From a virus: a stretch of DNA of 26,492 nucleotides. Both the position numbers and the translations under genes were made by a program. Below are positions 9,776 to 21,885 of this stretch, piece after piece. Location: the IMG/VR virus record IMGVR_UViG_3300007236_000046, positions 1 to 26,492 of that record. One strand, 5' to 3'. The notes beneath the pieces were generated by a model. That model saw nothing but the letters and a program-made list of their open reading frames with translations, made no database searches and was not told the DNA's origin. Every line of letters starts with the position of its first letter. Within the stretch, counting starts at the first letter, position 1.

Positions 9776-11275
9776 TTATCTTAGAGGGTACTTACCCCCA
9801 CCTTTCACTCGTACATTGTCTATTCTAACGCCAAAAAATCTCAATAAAGCAGATGCAGCACGTTTACCTAATGAAACGATATAACTGAACGCACTACGAA
9901 CACGAGACATAATTTTATCTAAAACTTTTTTAGCAGTGTTGGCAAGTTCACTCCCAATATTTCTTGCCATCTTTGATAGCTTAGAAAACATTGCAAACTC
10001 GTCTAGTTGTTGCATTTCTTCCATCAAGAGATTATCTTGTAACATTTCTTCTTGAATTATATCATGAAACGTTTCTTCTGCAAGAGCTTTCTTACTCAAC
10101 TTTTTACTCCTCAGAGCAAGATAAGGTGCACTACCACTAGAGGATTTGAAAGACACATAAAAACTATTACCTCTTGCAAGTACTTTACCTGCACCCTCAG
10201 CAGAATCTAATTGAAGAATATCTGTAATGGCACCTGTATCACGAAACGTTACGATAGAATTTGCAACACCTTGTGATGACGTACCAAATTTCACACGTCC
10301 TGTCGCAGCTTCAAAACAAAAGTGTGACTTGAAAACATCATCACTAAACAACTTATTTAATTGTGAATTAATTTCATTTGCACCGAGGTTTGCATCGTCC
10401 AGTTCTTTAATTAAAGCAGCTTCAGAATCACTCAACTTACCTTTCTTTTGAAGACTCTGAACAGCATCAACCGTTTGTTTGGTACTCAACTTAACCATTT
10501 TTTCTTCTAATAAAGAAGTAATCTCTTTAATTTTTTTAGAACCAGTAGTAGAAGCACTATAGGTAGACATTGCAGCATTAACCGTTGCAATTGCCTCCTC
10601 TTTACCAGCAGACATCAACTGAGAACCACCTGATTTTTTAAGTGAAATGTGTTTGTTGCCGTCAATCAAATCAGTCTTAGGGGTCCTATTAGTGGCACCC
10701 CATTTTGACCAATCCCCCGTTATAGGCAGGACAGATGCACCCAGTTGTTTTAAATCATTAACCCCAAGTTTTTCCACAAAGTCTTTACCGAGTCGAACTG
10801 CCTGTTTCTCATGACCTTCCCAATACTTTTGTGCTCTATCCCACTCAGGACCATCTATGGGTAACTTATTATGTACTTTAACACCAACTGCAATCAGTGA
10901 TTCCCAGTCTTCTCCAGACGGGTTTTTACCAGATAAAGTACTCAACCCATTCATGATTTTATCAACATTACCTACGGAAAATGATTTACCATAGGTATTT
11001 TTGAATGCAACTTGAATCTCTTTCCCTTCGGCTGAACCTTTTGCAACTCCTGTATCTTCGTACTTCTTGATAGTCTGAATCCATTCACTACTATCTTTTA
11101 CCGGAGGTAATTTATAAGAAGCTGTATCTTTTGATGAATAAATCAGTTCACCTTCCACAGACCTTTTGATTATAGTATCAACATTGTTTCTTTTATAGAT
11201 ATCAGTAACGTCAATGTTACCTTCAATCAAAAAAGATTCAGTGAGGTCTTTGTTTAATTGTGTGAAAGATTTCAT
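9776..11275 (-). CDS. Predicted head-packaged protein with PD-(D/E)XK-like nuclease domain
   Basis: A 499-residue protein from the ATG at 11275; an upstream TTG at 11326 would start inside gp46 and is less likely. Its N-terminus MKSFTQLNKDLTES matches that of the 100-residue head-operon protein (MKTFSQISKELIES) and resembles the T4 capsid-targeting sequence MKTYQEFIAEA, with gp21-type sites LTE (11-13) and LIE (16-18). Residues 120-225 look like a restriction-type nuclease core: a helix with E122/E125, then 'PKTDLIDG' (D202) and 'ISLKKSGGSQL' (K213), i.e. D-x8-SLK. Residues 245-310 are helical. The basic amphipathic C-terminus (450-499) is rich in Lys, Arg and Ala. A late motif CATAAATA lies exactly 5 nt before the ATG. 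Packaging and nuclease activity are inferences from motifs. Confidence 0.6.
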   Translation of the reverse strand: MKSFTQLNKDLTESFLIEGNIDVTDIYKRNNVDTIIKRSVEGELIYSSKDTASYKLPPVKDSSEWIQTIKKYEDTGVAKGSAEGKEIQVAFKNTYGKSFSVGNVDKIMNGLSTLSGKNPSGEDWESLIAVGVKVHNKLPIDGPEWDRAQKYWEGHEKQAVRLGKDFVEKLGVNDLKQLGASVLPITGDWSKWGATNRTPKTDLIDGNKHISLKKSGGSQLMSAGKEEAIATVNAAMSTYSASTTGSKKIKEITSLLEEKMVKLSTKQTVDAVQSLQKKGKLSDSEAALIKELDDANLGANEINSQLNKLFSDDVFKSHFCFEAATGRVKFGTSSQGVANSIVTFRDTGAITDILQLDSAEGAGKVLARGNSFYVSFKSSSGSAPYLALRSKKLSKKALAEETFHDIIQEEMLQDNLLMEEMQQLDEFAMFSKLSKMARNIGSELANTAKKVLDKIMSRVRSAFSYIVSLGKRAASALLRFFGVRIDNVRVKGGGKYPLR

Positions 11276-11280
11276 ATCAC

Positions 11281-11288
11281 TATTTATG
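11281..11288 (-). promoter_or_regulatory. Late promoter CATAAATA, predicted leaderless start
   Basis: CATAAATA on the minus strand fits the NATAAATA late consensus of marine T4-like phages. It follows directly on the gp46 stop and ends 5 nt before the ATG at 11275. In T4 late promoters 5 nt separate the motif from +1, so transcription would begin at the A of the ATG. No ribosome binding site is present. Confidence 0.6.
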
Positions 11289-18146: not shown

Positions 18147-18151
18147 ATATC

Positions 18152-18159
18152 TATTTATG
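18152..18159 (-). promoter_or_regulatory. Late promoter CATAAATA for gp3, predicted leaderless
   Basis: CATAAATA on the minus strand, then 5 nt (GATAT), then the gp3 ATG at 18146. The spacing equals that at 11281-11288. It sits just after the gp23 terminator, so gp3 needs its own promoter. Confidence 0.65.
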
Positions 18160-18214: not shown

Positions 18215-19519
18215 TTACATGATGTTTGTAACAGCAGCCTTACGATAGTATTGGTTTTGACCAGCAGTGATGTCACCAGCTGATTGACCAGCAGTTTGCA
18301 GAGCAACGAATGGGTTGACTGCCATACCATAACGGGTCTTGAAACCAATCTTAGGTTGGAAAGTATTTTCACCAACCGCACGTACCATCTGGAGAGGTAC
18401 GTATGGGCAGTAGAACATACCAGCATCATAAGGATTTGAACCCTTATAACCAACCGTCAAATACTGTGAACCAGCATATGGGTCGATGTATACACGATGA
18501 CGACCATTAAGAACACCAGCAAAGGTGTTACCAGTGTCATCTACACTTAAACCAGTGTTCAAAGCAGGAGTGTAATCCAACACACCAGCCATTGATAATG
18601 CTGAAGCAACATCAGAAGAACAAAGGATAAAGTTACCCTTACCGCGACGAGTGTCAATAGCAATTGCGTTTGACTCACGTTCGATTTGGAATAACAGACC
18701 CTTGAATTTTTCAACTGACCATCGACCGTTAGCGTCAACGTCTAGGTTGAAAGTACCGGGTGAAGCTGTACCAAGAGCACCTTGCTTAGCTTGAATATTC
18801 ATTTCACGGATAACTTCACGGTTAATTTCCGCAAGAATTTCCGTAGAAAGAATGTTAGCAAGTTCAGCTTCTGCGTCAAGACCGTGGATAGCCTTAAGGT
18901 CTTGTGAAAGTTCGAGTGAGTACTCAGCTTTCAACGCACGTGACTTAGCAGTTACCGTGGAACGCTCAATACTGAACGCCATTTCACGGAAATCGTTAGT
19001 TCCAGGATTATCTCCAAGAGCTTCTGCGGTAGCAGTAGCCATACCAGTCGGTGTGTCATTCTCGTACCCAGGTGAAGCAAATGGGTCATCTTCTTGTGCA
19101 GCAAGAGGACCAGAGATAGGACCACTACCTGTAGAATAAGCAACATTTGCTTCATCATGCAGGGCTTCAGTCTTGCTAGCAATACCAGCTGTTCGGTAAT
19201 CGTTATAACGTGCTTTCATTGCAAAGATAAGACCAGTTGGTCCAGTCATTGGTTGTACACCAATCATATCATATGCAATAAGGTTAGGCATAGCACGACG
19301 CACCAAAGAAATCAGAATTGGGTCCCAATTGTTGATGTGTGCACCAGTCGCATTCAGAGGGGCTTCCGCCAACATCTGACGCTCTTCACGAAGAGCATTT
19401 TCTTGGTTCTCAAGAATTACAGCAGTAACAGAACGCTTGTAATTATCGGTGATCGCAGGAAGATCAGCGTGTTCAAGGATCGGTTGCCACTTTTCTTGTA
19501 GGTTTTCTGACATAAACAT
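18215..19519 (-). CDS. gp23: Major capsid protein gp23
   Basis: A 434-residue protein of the T4 gp23 family. 'WDPILISLVRRAMPNLIAYDMIGVQPMTGPTGLIFAMKARY' (split at about residues 65-105) and 'FREMAFSIERSTVTAKSRALKAEYS' are strongly conserved gp23 blocks, as is 'YVPLQMVRAVGENTFQPKIGFKTRY' near the end. It forms the hexamers of the head shell after proteolysis. The likely gp21 cleavage site is L50-A-E52, before APLNATG, giving a mature protein of 382 residues. The ATG at 19519 is used because AAGGAG is 10 nt upstream; a second ATG at 19513 is less well placed. A strong terminator follows the gene. It is shorter than T4 gp23 (521), as usual in marine T4-likes. Confidence 0.97.
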   Translation of the reverse strand: MFMSENLQEKWQPILEHADLPAITDNYKRSVTAVILENQENALREERQMLAEAPLNATGAHINNWDPILISLVRRAMPNLIAYDMIGVQPMTGPTGLIFAMKARYNDYRTAGIASKTEALHDEANVAYSTGSGPISGPLAAQEDDPFASPGYENDTPTGMATATAEALGDNPGTNDFREMAFSIERSTVTAKSRALKAEYSLELSQDLKAIHGLDAEAELANILSTEILAEINREVIREMNIQAKQGALGTASPGTFNLDVDANGRWSVEKFKGLLFQIERESNAIAIDTRRGKGNFILCSSDVASALSMAGVLDYTPALNTGLSVDDTGNTFAGVLNGRHRVYIDPYAGSQYLTVGYKGSNPYDAGMFYCPYVPLQMVRAVGENTFQPKIGFKTRYGMAVNPFVALQTAGQSAGDITAGQNQYYRKAAVTNIM

Positions 19520-20951: not shown

Positions 20952-21605
20952 TTAAAGATTTTCAACGAATTGTTTCCAAAGAGTTAACTTAGTCTCTTCC
21001 AATTCGACCCTTTTTGATTCACGAAGTTGTGCTCTCATCTGCTCAAGTTCAACAGCTTTGAGTGCACCATTTTCGTAGAACCATTCTACCCCTTCATAAA
21101 TCCCTTCAACGAATGCTTCAGGGGCAGAGGGATCTGCAACGATGTCAGCAGCAGTAGCAAGTTTGAAATCATCCTTAACGTACTGTGCTCCACCTTTCTC
21201 TTCAATTGAACCGAGTCCTCTTGAAGAAACTCCTAACTTGGCACCATCATCAATTAACGCTCTGACAATATTACCATTAGGTGTACTTAAAATCTTAGCA
21301 CGTCCAACAAAATTATCACCATCTTCTTCTAAAGATGTGATGATATGTGATACACGGTCTAAGTTAATTGTTGGTCCATCTGGGTGACCAAGTTCTCCAA
21401 AAGCTCGGCCGGGTGCAACAAACTCTTTGTTATACCTTGCAACCTCTTCTGCCATGACTTCTTTTGGATAAATGCGGCCGTTACGATTTTTGATATTCGA
21501 CTGCATAAAGACACCTTCAATAAAGTAGTCTTTCTTGCCTGATTCATCAATCGCCTCAACTAGGCTAGTCAATGAACTATCGTTAAACTCTGATATTAAT
21601 TTCAT
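20952..21605 (-). CDS. gp21: Prohead protease gp21
   Basis: A 217-residue serine protease (T4 gp21 is 212). 'NIKNRNGRIYPKEVM' (37-51), 'GELGHPDGPTINLDRVSHII' with catalytic H74, and 'LGVSSRGLGS' (124-133) with catalytic Ser at 127 or 128 are the signature blocks of T4-type prohead proteases. It sits in the prohead core and cleaves after (L/I)-x-E, maturing gp23, destroying gp22 and trimming internal proteins. It overlaps the 100-residue gene by 23 nt, so it is translationally coupled. Confidence 0.96.
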   Translation of the reverse strand: MKLISEFNDSSLTSLVEAIDESGKKDYFIEGVFMQSNIKNRNGRIYPKEVMAEEVARYNKEFVAPGRAFGELGHPDGPTINLDRVSHIITSLEEDGDNFVGRAKILSTPNGNIVRALIDDGAKLGVSSRGLGSIEEKGGAQYVKDDFKLATAADIVADPSAPEAFVEGIYEGVEWFYENGALKAVELEQMRAQLRESKRVELEETKLTLWKQFVENL

Positions 21606-21885
21606 CGATAACTTCCTTAATGTTTATGCCTTCTGATTCCATTTGACCAAGAACACCTTTTGTATCCTTGACTTCTTTCTCTGCTTGTTTTAGAGACTTG
21701 AAGTCACCCAATTTAGAATCATTCAAATATACATGAAACTTCTTTCCATTCATAGAACTGGTAAAAGAAATGATGACCTTCTCACCACCAATTTTTGATG
21801 TCTCACGTTTTACAAATTCGTGACCTTTAGGTAATTTAAATTTGGATTCGATGAGTTCCTTGGAAATTTGTGAAAAAGTTTTCAT
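21583..21885 (-). CDS. Head-operon protein with capsid-targeting-like N-terminus
   Basis: A 100-residue protein in the place of T4 gene 68, just before gp21. Its first residues MKTFSQISKELIES resemble the T4 capsid-targeting sequence (MKTYQEFIAEA) and nearly match those of the predicted packaged nuclease at 9776-11275. L11-I-E13 is a good gp21 cleavage site. The rest (20-100) is a small alpha/beta domain: strands 'KVIISFTSSMNGKKFHVYLND' (36-56), then a charged helix. It is probably a prohead core or internal protein. It begins directly after the stop of the 52-residue gene (TAAATG). Confidence 0.75.
   Translation of the reverse strand: MKTFSQISKELIESKFKLPKGHEFVKRETSKIGGEKVIISFTSSMNGKKFHVYLNDSKLGDFKSLKQAEKEVKDTKGVLGQMESEGINIKEVIDEINIRV

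What the first reader, a model, noticed from the sequence alone, without database searches (positions are those of the whole stretch)
9776..11275. Predicted head-packaged PD-(D/E)XK-like nuclease
Seen: the N-terminus MKSFTQLNKDLTES carries L-x-E at 11-13 and 16-18, and the core has a Glu-containing helix (122-125), then D202 in 'PKTDLI' and 'ISLKK' with K213. Known: T4 internal proteins enter the head through an N-terminal targeting peptide that gp21 removes after (L/I)xE, and PD-(D/E)XK nucleases use D...(E/S)xK. Inference: a nuclease is packed in the head under late control and injected with the DNA, perhaps to attack host or competitor DNA. The basic C-terminus could bind DNA or membrane.
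Basis: partly seen in the sequence, partly recalled or inferred. Interest (0 to 1): 0.82.

Follow-up and report, generated by a model that had tools for sequence, protein, structure and literature searches.

The report
Nuclease carried inside phage heads
A common but unnamed protein of marine relatives of phage T4 looks like a DNA-cutting enzyme that is loaded into the virus head, probably trimmed there at both ends and injected into the host with the viral DNA.

Summary
The finding holds up. The 499-aa ORF (minus strand, 11275-9776) has the stated start, LxE tripeptides, D202 and K213. It belongs to a large family (384 confirmed loci in viral contigs) without a Pfam match. TPKTD...SLK is in 45 of 45 aligned members, E125 in 44 of 44 scorable ones. 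The predicted core aligns best to restriction enzymes HinP1I, MspI and HhaI (Z 9.1, 9.0, 6.2; next chain 4.1).

Head targeting is supported by comparison. A T4-type N-terminal tag is in 32 of 79 family ORFs, also in neighbouring enzymes, but in 0 of 243 members of 23 other gene clusters. In T4 it marks all three internal proteins. A late-type promoter ends 5 nt before the ATG, as at the tail tube gene.

New here: a second LxE with a free middle residue is kept between core and tail, suggesting protease trimming at both ends. In 44 of 79 cases the gene precedes DUF6267, which has ligase-like motifs.

Nuclease activity, virion presence and DNA target are untested.

The parts
9776..11275 (-). Predicted head-packaged PD-(D/E)XK-like nuclease, 499 aa
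   Evidence: ORF and translation; family of 384 confirmed loci; fold match
11281..11288 (-). Late-type promoter CATAAATA, 5 nt before the ATG
   Evidence: same element and spacing in 25 of 79 family ORFs and at the tail tube gene of this window
11237..11275 (-). Capsid-targeting-like N-terminal peptide MKSFTQLNKDLTE, predicted cut after E13 (or after E18)
   Evidence: T4 IPII and IPIII begin MKTYQEFIAE
10097..11056 (-). Nuclease core, residues 74-393 (range aligned to HinP1I/MspI)
10901..10903 (-). E125 of the first core helix
   Evidence: 44 of 44 scorable rows
10670..10672 (-). D202 of TPKTD
   Evidence: 45 of 45
10637..10639 (-). K213 of SLK
   Evidence: TPKTD...SLK in 45 of 45
9998..10027 (-). 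Conserved double L-x-E between core and tail (L417-M-E419 and L424-D-E426), predicted second protease site
   Evidence: L417 and E419 in 38 of 38 main-clade rows with a variable middle residue; an LxE before the tail in the 7 other rows
9779..9997 (-). Basic amphipathic C-terminal tail, residues 427-499 (16 K+R, 3 D+E)
20952..21605 (-). gp21-type prohead protease expected to cut the LxE sites
   Evidence: phrog_207 head maturation protease, E 4.7e-78
21583..21885 (-). Second ORF of the window whose own start carries the tag motif (MKTFSQISKELIE), beside the protease
   Evidence: no PHROG match
18147..18159 (-). CATAAATA plus 5 nt before the ATG of the tail tube gene (gp19-type), same geometry as at the nuclease gene
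   Evidence: tail tube phrog_45, E 8.3e-33

Best explanation
The gene encodes a DNA endonuclease of PD-(D/E)XK fold (SxK variant, closest in fold to HinP1I/MspI/HhaI) that is made late, drawn into the prohead core by an N-terminal capsid-targeting peptide, and trimmed by the gp21-type protease after LTE13 (or LIE18). It is probably trimmed a second time at the conserved LxE pair at 417-426, which would free the basic tail from the nuclease. The mature enzyme would leave the head with the phage DNA and nick or cut DNA in the new host; host chromosome is the likeliest target. Shown by computation: fold match, catalytic-residue conservation, tag, both LxE sites, late-type promoter, protease gene. 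Inferred: packaging, cleavage, injection, activity. Guessed: target.
For: Fold: core model pLDDT 90.5. VIA-align top rows are HinP1I 2fkc Z 9.1, rmsd 3.9, 186 aligned; HinP1I 1ynm Z 9.1; MspI 1sa3 Z 9.0, rmsd 5.0, 191 aligned; HhaI 6uke Z 6.2; the fifth row is 4.1. The full-length model gives MspI 8.8 and HinP1I 8.4, then 4.7. Residues: TPKTD...SLK 45 of 45, E125 44 of 44; two distant cyanophage relatives (phrog_22045) keep E-helix, PKTD, SMK/SVK and QL. Tag: 32 of 79 strict and 42 of 79 loose in the family; 0 of 243 in 23 other clusters of five or more; in T4 the strict motif falls on six annotated CDS starts, three of them ipI, ipII and ipIII. Late-type promoter at a fixed 5-nt spacing in 25 of 79 family ORFs and at the tail tube gene. 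C-terminal L417-x-E419 in 38 of 38 main-clade rows, x being eight different residues. gp21-type gene present. Neighbouring nucleotidyltransferases carry the same tag, and T4-GC190 was detected in S-SM1 virions (PMC3037559, passages); P-HM2 annotation places T4-GC190 directly after T4-GC71, the DUF6267 gene.
Against: No virion proteome of a phage holding this exact family turned up in the paper searches. 37 of 79 family ORFs miss even the loose tag pattern, although some of these have an LxE just before the core and two are a fragment and a partial relative. The two cyanophage relatives of phrog_22045 that I read have no tag and no tail. Foldseek alone gave no PDB match at E <= 0.001, and Z near 9 is only moderate. 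No Pfam family matched the window protein, no nuclease is among the 25 of 83 Pfam families shown for the 45 members, mostly chance-level, and none in the PDB sequence search. The usual second acidic residue is a serine. The tag motif also has false positives in T4 (gene 43, td, ndd.1) and misses alt, 67 and 68. In the S-CREM2 virion table (PMC10665884, section 18 read) the cytidylyltransferase ORF154 is listed but not the two ORFs just before it; I did not check what those ORFs are.
Confidence: 0.72

Rival explanations
1. It is an ordinary cytoplasmic late nuclease that works with gp46/gp47 or with packaging (a resolvase- or repair-type enzyme); the N-terminal peptide is a coincidence.
For: It lies between gp46 and a peptide deformylase here and in 15 of 79 family ORFs, this one included; late expression would also suit a packaging nuclease.
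Against: In 44 of 79 a DUF6267 gene follows within 1.5 kb, in 26 of these with gp41 upstream. The tag motif is in 0 of 243 members of 23 other clusters, replication genes included by eye. The N-terminal and C-terminal LxE sites are kept where the flanks are not.
Confidence: 0.15
2. It is packaged but acts inside the new cell as part of a nucleic-acid repair or end-processing kit with the DUF6267 ligase-like protein and the nucleotidyltransferase, rather than as a weapon against host DNA.
For: Gene order nuclease-DUF6267 in 44 of 79; DUF6267 has KxDGxPA in 33 of 33 and an EGxV-type motif in 30 of 33 ORFs, which I recall as ligase motifs I and IV; some neighbours carry the tag. In cyanophages and phage C48C1 the slot before DUF6267 can hold other proteins with D...SxK-looking strings (by eye).
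Against: DUF6267 is not found in the 47-kb contig that shares this window's nuclease gene or in the 135-kb contig G002, so the nuclease may occur without it; those records may be fragments.
Confidence: 0.25
3. It is a packaged but catalytically dead protein of nuclease fold that serves as core filler or DNA-binding internal protein.
For: Serine replaces the second acidic residue; T4 head cargo includes non-enzymes such as the restriction inhibitor IPI (PMC9026906, passages).
Against: TPKTD, SLK and E125 are kept across proteins only 23-27% identical, and the same motif order is kept in phrog_22045 proteins at 14-16% identity, which fits catalysis better than filler.
Confidence: 0.12

Closest known systems
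HinP1I / MspI / HhaI (type II restriction endonucleases, PD-(D/E)XK)
   Same: Best fold matches (MspI and HinP1I with both models, HhaI with the core model); a TD...SxK arrangement comparable to the SDx18QxK (HinP1I) and TDx17NxK (MspI) motifs, both recalled, not tested here
   Different: No sequence match seen (25 of 83 Pfam families shown; PDB sequences); C5-methylase in only 2 of the 10 records that hold the nuclease; extra targeting peptide and predicted cleavable tail; one scan of genome contigs found no cellular relative
T4 internal proteins IPI, IPII, IPIII and Alt
   Same: MKxF/Y...(L/I)xE N-terminal peptide (IPs); gp21-type protease; trimming at both ends is reported for Alt (PMC9026906, passages)
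   Different: IPs are small non-nucleases, IPI being an inhibitor of a type IV restriction enzyme; here the cargo is a predicted nuclease
phrog_22045 (unnamed cyanophage family; S-RIM50 AMO42966.1, S-IOM18 YP_008126472.1)
   Same: Weak sequence match (E 8.9e-4 for the window protein), structure match of S-RIM50 and S-IOM18 proteins (BFVD E 1.9e-8 and 5.1e-6), E-helix/PKTD/SxK/QL motifs, and it lies directly before DUF6267 in these two phages
   Different: 276 aa, no capsid-targeting peptide and no basic tail
Cyanophage virion cytidylyltransferase/NMNAT (T4-GC190 and similar)
   Same: A nucleotidyltransferase of this kind is encoded in the neighbourhood in many relatives, with the same tag; T4-GC190 was detected in S-SM1 virions (PMC3037559), and NMNAT-like or cytidylyltransferase proteins in S-SCSM1 and S-CREM2 virions (PMC9602691, PMC10665884)
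   Different: Different enzyme; shows the packaging route, not this nuclease
Polyvalent proteins and MuF-fused effectors of phages
   Same: Enzymes thought to be packaged and injected (PMC5512222, PMC9503650, passages seen)
   Different: Single-function enzyme with a short T4-type tag rather than a fusion to a head protein

Membership tests
PD-(D/E)XK nuclease superfamily | alpha-beta-beta-beta-alpha-beta restriction-enzyme fold | tested here: met
   HinP1I Z 9.1, MspI Z 9.0, HhaI Z 6.2, then a drop to 4.1; moderate Z, no Foldseek E <= 0.001
PD-(D/E)XK nuclease superfamily | Conserved D ... xK pair (plus a helix E) | tested here: met
   TPKTD...SLK 45 of 45, E125 44 of 44
PD-(D/E)XK nuclease superfamily | Canonical second D/E two residues before K (motif residues are known to vary, so I do not treat it as decisive; a review notes replacements of the lysine, PMC4081073, passages; replacement of the acidic residue in HinP1I/MspI is recalled) | tested here: not met
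   S211 in 45 of 45
PD-(D/E)XK nuclease superfamily | Metal-dependent DNA cleavage | not testable with these tools
   -
MspI or HinP1I restriction-enzyme families (Pfam level) | Match to those family profiles or sequences | tested here: not met
   0 Pfam families for the window protein at E <= 10; neither among the 25 of 83 families shown for 45 members; neither in the PDB sequence search
MspI or HinP1I restriction-enzyme families (Pfam level) | Partner methyltransferase | tested here: inconclusive
   PF00145 in 2 of 15 records, both among the 10 that hold the nuclease; other methylase families not tested, several records may be fragments
T4-type capsid-targeted internal protein | N-terminal MKxF-type peptide ending in (L/I)xE | tested here: met
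T4-type capsid-targeted internal protein | Late promoter | tested here: met
   CATAAATA 5 nt before ATG, as at the tail tube gene; motif match, not a measured transcript
T4-type capsid-targeted internal protein | gp21-type protease in the same genome | tested here: met
   phrog_207 E 4.7e-78
T4-type capsid-targeted internal protein | Trimmed protein present in virions | not testable with these tools
   No proteome of a phage with this family turned up
phrog_22045 | Profile match and shared motif order | tested here: met
   E 8.9e-4; 4 of 5 A1 members at E <= 1, best 8.9e-5; motifs in S-RIM50 and S-IOM18

The most novel reading that the evidence does not exclude
Marine T4-like viruses carry in their heads a set of co-packaged nucleic-acid enzymes, each bearing the same cleavable tag: a restriction-enzyme-like nuclease (this gene, or another nuclease-like protein in the same slot), a ligase-like DUF6267 protein and a nucleotidyltransferase. 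The nuclease is activated, or released from a DNA- or membrane-binding tail, by the prohead protease cutting at both ends, so that it is held harmless beside the viral DNA and acts only after injection.
Probability: 0.3. Interest if true: 0.85.

Novelty: new variant of a known kind. Interest (0 to 1): 0.68.

Why it matters
It gives a likely function to an unnamed family with hundreds of marine virus members, adds a predicted nuclease to the known kinds of injected T4-type head cargo, and raises a sharp question: how a nuclease can be stored in a head packed with the virus's own DNA. The conserved cut sites make this directly testable by mass spectrometry of virions of two cultured phages, HTVC008M and Melnitz. 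The tag plus fixed-spacing late promoter also suggests a simple genome-mining rule for finding other injected proteins of T4-like marine viruses.

Tried and rejected
Membership in a named family: Pfam (0 families for the window protein; no nuclease family among the 25 of 83 shown for 45 members) and PDB sequences gave nothing useful; the weak phrog_6918 'holin' match (E 0.29) and the BORCS6 (14 of 45 members, best 8.1e-5, in helical parts as I take it) and phiKZ_IP (3 of 45, best 0.042) Pfam matches were taken as chance.

Sequence self-avoidance as a clue to specificity: several palindromes are nearly absent in family genomes (GATC under a tenth of expectation in 49 of 80 loci of 8 kb or more, redundant ones included; TCGA 2 of 121 and CGCG 1 of 68 in HTVC008M). 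Rejected as evidence for the nuclease's own site: the Pelagibacter podophage HTVC011P has GATC 0 of 72 and TCGA 0 of 19 in the 34,000 bases examined and shows no match to the nuclease profile; T4 also avoids GATC (190 of 569); and L088 and L095, whose nucleases share 344 of 352 residues, differ in ACGT (20 of 47 against 0 of 18). Another podophage, HTVC010P, does not avoid GATC (126 of 142), so the pressure is not general to that host either.

Restriction-modification pairing: Melnitz encodes a C5 methylase, but only 2 of 15 records do. Cellular relatives: a genome-contig scan found none (14 pattern matches, 0 relatives). The proteins in the slot before DUF6267 in S-CAM9, P-HM2, C48C1 and S-PRM1 are not detected by the family profile; their D...SxK look is by eye only. 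A mapping of D202/K213 onto HinP1I/MspI residues could not be made, as no sequences or coordinates of those enzymes were obtained. 'Not in print' was not established: the listings showed no paper on this family or on DUF6267.

Full report
OBSERVATION. The ORF lies on the minus strand, 11275 to 9776, 499 aa from an ATG, between gp46 (13004-11289; SbcC-like, phrog_77) and a peptide deformylase gene (9774-9283; phrog_2890). The window is a whole IMG/VR record of 26,492 bases; it carries a gp21-type head protease and a major head protein, a head scaffold and a tail tube gene.

FAMILY. Pfam has no match; PHROGs gives phrog_22045 at E 8.9e-4 and a chance-level phrog_6918 at 0.29. The phages collection holds six records with a relative: two of Pelagibacter phage HTVC008M and four of Methylophilales phage Melnitz. 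A profile search of viral contigs confirmed 384 relatives among 411 pattern matches; the best 80 were kept. One scan of bacterial and archaeal genomes found none. In an alignment of 45 members (38 of the main clade, 7 of the HTVC008M/Melnitz type, identity to the window protein down to 23%), TPKTD and SL are in every row; SLK follows TPKTD after 7-14 residues in 45 of 45; E125 is in all 44 rows that cover it; Q219, S222, E227, E322, G326 and K329 are invariant. The apparent loss of K213 in four rows of the alignment is a misplaced gap.

FOLD. AlphaFold2 gave mean pLDDT 87.2 for the whole protein and 90.5 for residues 70-400. Foldseek alone found no PDB match at E <= 0.001 with either model. 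Re-alignment by VIA-align 2 of the chains ranked by Foldseek put MspI (Z 8.8) and HinP1I (Z 8.4) on top of 993 chains for the full model, next 4.7; for the core, HinP1I (9.1, 186 aligned, rmsd 3.9; a second entry 9.1), MspI (9.0), HhaI (6.2), next 4.1, of 584 chains. The tool warns that Z of 7-8 is a typical best value for models without a clear match; the weight here comes from four rows that are all restriction endonucleases of 4-bp sites (specificities recalled) and from the gap below them. The motif T-D-x8-S-x-K resembles the variant motifs that I recall for HinP1I and MspI. I call it a PD-(D/E)XK-like nuclease of the SxK variant; I do not file it in the HinP1I or MspI families, to which no sequence match was seen.

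TAG. T4 IPII and IPIII both begin MKTYQEFIAE; a review states that the IPIII propeptide targets proteins to the head and is processed, and that Alt is cut at both ends by gp21 (PMC9026906, passages). I scored M[KRQ]x[FY], then 2-12 residues, then [LIVF]xE. In T4 this falls on six annotated CDS starts: ipI, ipII, ipIII, and also gene 43, td and ndd.1, so it has false positives, and it misses alt, 67 and 68 (matched by hand to the tables). In the family's loci it is in 32 of 79 non-identical family ORFs, 42 of 79 with a looser form. Among clusters with at least five members it is in 63 of 168 members of the single-linkage cluster that includes the nucleases and nucleotidyltransferases, 2 of 29 of the DUF6267-type cluster and 0 of 243 members of the 23 other clusters. 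The 43 other proteins that carry it are, by eye, nucleotidyltransferases (FGRFNPPTxGH), small basic proteins, DUF6267 members and some unknowns. In the window it falls on two ORF starts, this gene and a 100-aa ORF beside the protease gene, and on one in-frame internal ATG. In HTVC008M the strict motif does not catch the nuclease, whose start reads MLSF. In the HTVC008M/Melnitz type the tag-like start abuts the core directly (MQGFKTFLSE-AKVKAEDYEA; MLSFTGYSNLSE-ARSRGEEMEE).

LATE CONTROL. CATAAATA ends exactly 5 nt before the ATG. In this window the same octamer with the same spacing precedes the tail tube gene. In 25 of 79 family ORFs an ATAAATA element sits 5 nt from the in-frame ATG. Among the fetched loci the exact arrangement followed by an ORF of 80 codons or more gave 38 distinct N-termini: by my hand count 23 nuclease starts, 8 nucleotidyltransferase starts and 7 others. 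By the geometry of T4 late promoters as I recall it, the transcript would start at or next to the ATG, so these mRNAs may be leaderless; no ribosome-binding site is evident there by eye. Melnitz-type members have an upstream GGAG-like site instead (listing).

SECOND CUT SITE. Between core and tail, L417 and E419 are in 38 of 38 main-clade rows while the residue between them takes eight forms (T, N, H, S, I, M, L, Y); seven residues on, L424 is in 36 and E426 in 37 of 38. The seven other members, with unrelated flanks, also have an LxE (LLHE, ILHE, LLTE, ILTE, ILNE, VLSE, SLDE) just before their tail. Conserved L and E around a free residue is what a gp21-type site should look like. This linker is rich in glutamate, so some LxE would be expected by chance; it is the aligned conservation with a free middle residue that counts. 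The tail after it is basic in the main clade (here 16 K+R against 3 D+E) and in the Melnitz type, but not in the HTVC008M type (8-10 against 7-10), so a DNA- or membrane-binding role for the tail is not general. Trimming at both ends is my inference, with Alt as precedent.

NEIGHBOURS. Of 79 family ORFs, 44 have DUF6267 as the next recognised gene within 1.5 kb (26 of them with gp41 upstream), 15 lie between gp46 and deformylase as here, 4 before gp32; the other 16 are at contig ends or unassigned, with only these seed genes looked for. DUF6267 (PF19782) has KxDGxPA in 33 of 33 ORFs, an EGxV-type motif in 30 of 33 and an LxE before its conserved start in 25 of 33; I read these as ligase-type nucleotidyltransferase motifs I and IV, from memory. 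A PDB sequence search with one member gave no support. DUF6267 relatives occur in 467 phage records, 452 of them named Synechococcus, Prochlorococcus or Cyanophage. It was not found in 7 of 14 records that hold the nuclease, among them the 47-kb contig that shares this window's gene. In S-RIM50 and S-IOM18 the gene before DUF6267 is the phrog_22045 protein, whose sequence keeps the E-helix, PKTD, SMK or SVK, and QL and whose predicted structure matches ours (BFVD E 1.9e-8 and 5.1e-6). These two lack tag and tail, which weighs against packaging being universal. In S-CAM9, S-PRM1, P-HM2 and C48C1 other proteins hold that slot, with D...SxK-like strings by eye only. The gene after DUF6267 in P-HM2, the cytidylyltransferase T4-GC190, has its S-SM1 counterpart detected in purified virions (PMC3037559, passages); NMNAT-like or cytidylyltransferase proteins are reported in S-SCSM1 and S-CREM2 virions, with the authors' caution that they might be carried over during purification (PMC9602691 and PMC10665884, passages and one section).

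FUNCTION. Most likely: packaged late, trimmed, injected, cuts DNA early in the next infection, host chromosome first. For this: T4 breaks down host DNA (recalled) and injected head proteins act first. Not shown: any activity, any target. How phage DNA in the same head is spared is open; possible answers are lack of free metal in the packed head, activation only after trimming or after release, or site avoidance. Site avoidance was examined and cannot be pinned on this enzyme.

VERDICT. It is a new variant of a known kind: T4-type injected head protein, with a predicted restriction-like nuclease as cargo.

Noticed in passing
window 1-26492, break near 19451: GATC is rare: 24 sites against about 118 expected, and only 2 (5270, 12137) lie before 19451 while 22 lie from there on; a recombined segment or a chimeric contig are possible reasons.
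   Followed up: partly
window 18147-18159 and 11276-11288: The tail tube gene and the nuclease share a late-type octamer exactly 5 nt before the ATG, suggesting leaderless late mRNAs in these viruses.
   Followed up: partly
HTVC008M, whole genome (L171-L173): TCGA (2 of about 121) and CGCG (1 of about 68) are almost absent; the relative L101 instead lacks ACGT (0 of 23) in the 17 kb held.
   Followed up: partly
L155:5255-5995, L159:5069-5995, L156:4529-6019, L158:4700-6001: Cyanophage and C48C1 proteins in the slot before DUF6267 are not matched by the nuclease profile yet each shows a D...SxK-like string by eye, as if different nucleases swap in the same place.
   Followed up: partly
DUF6267 members, e.g. 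L023:5183-6403: KxDG and EGxV motifs in this family of unknown function look like a covalent nucleotidyltransferase or ligase.
   Followed up: partly
L063 6001-7474 (G009 131692-132652): The nuclease gene is split into two overlapping ORFs by a frame change; sequencing error or a broken gene.
   Followed up: no
L012, L013, L015, L017, L021, L061, L064: Some family members have an extra stretch of about 250 residues after the tag, part of which also occurs inside nucleotidyltransferase proteins of relatives L030 and L045 (23-32% identity), a sign of domain exchange among tagged proteins.
   Followed up: partly
L006 1-1025 (Melnitz-3): A C5-cytosine methylase annotated HhaI-like lies 7 kb from the nuclease gene, whose fold resembles HinP1I and HhaI; only 2 of 15 records have such a methylase.
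   Followed up: partly
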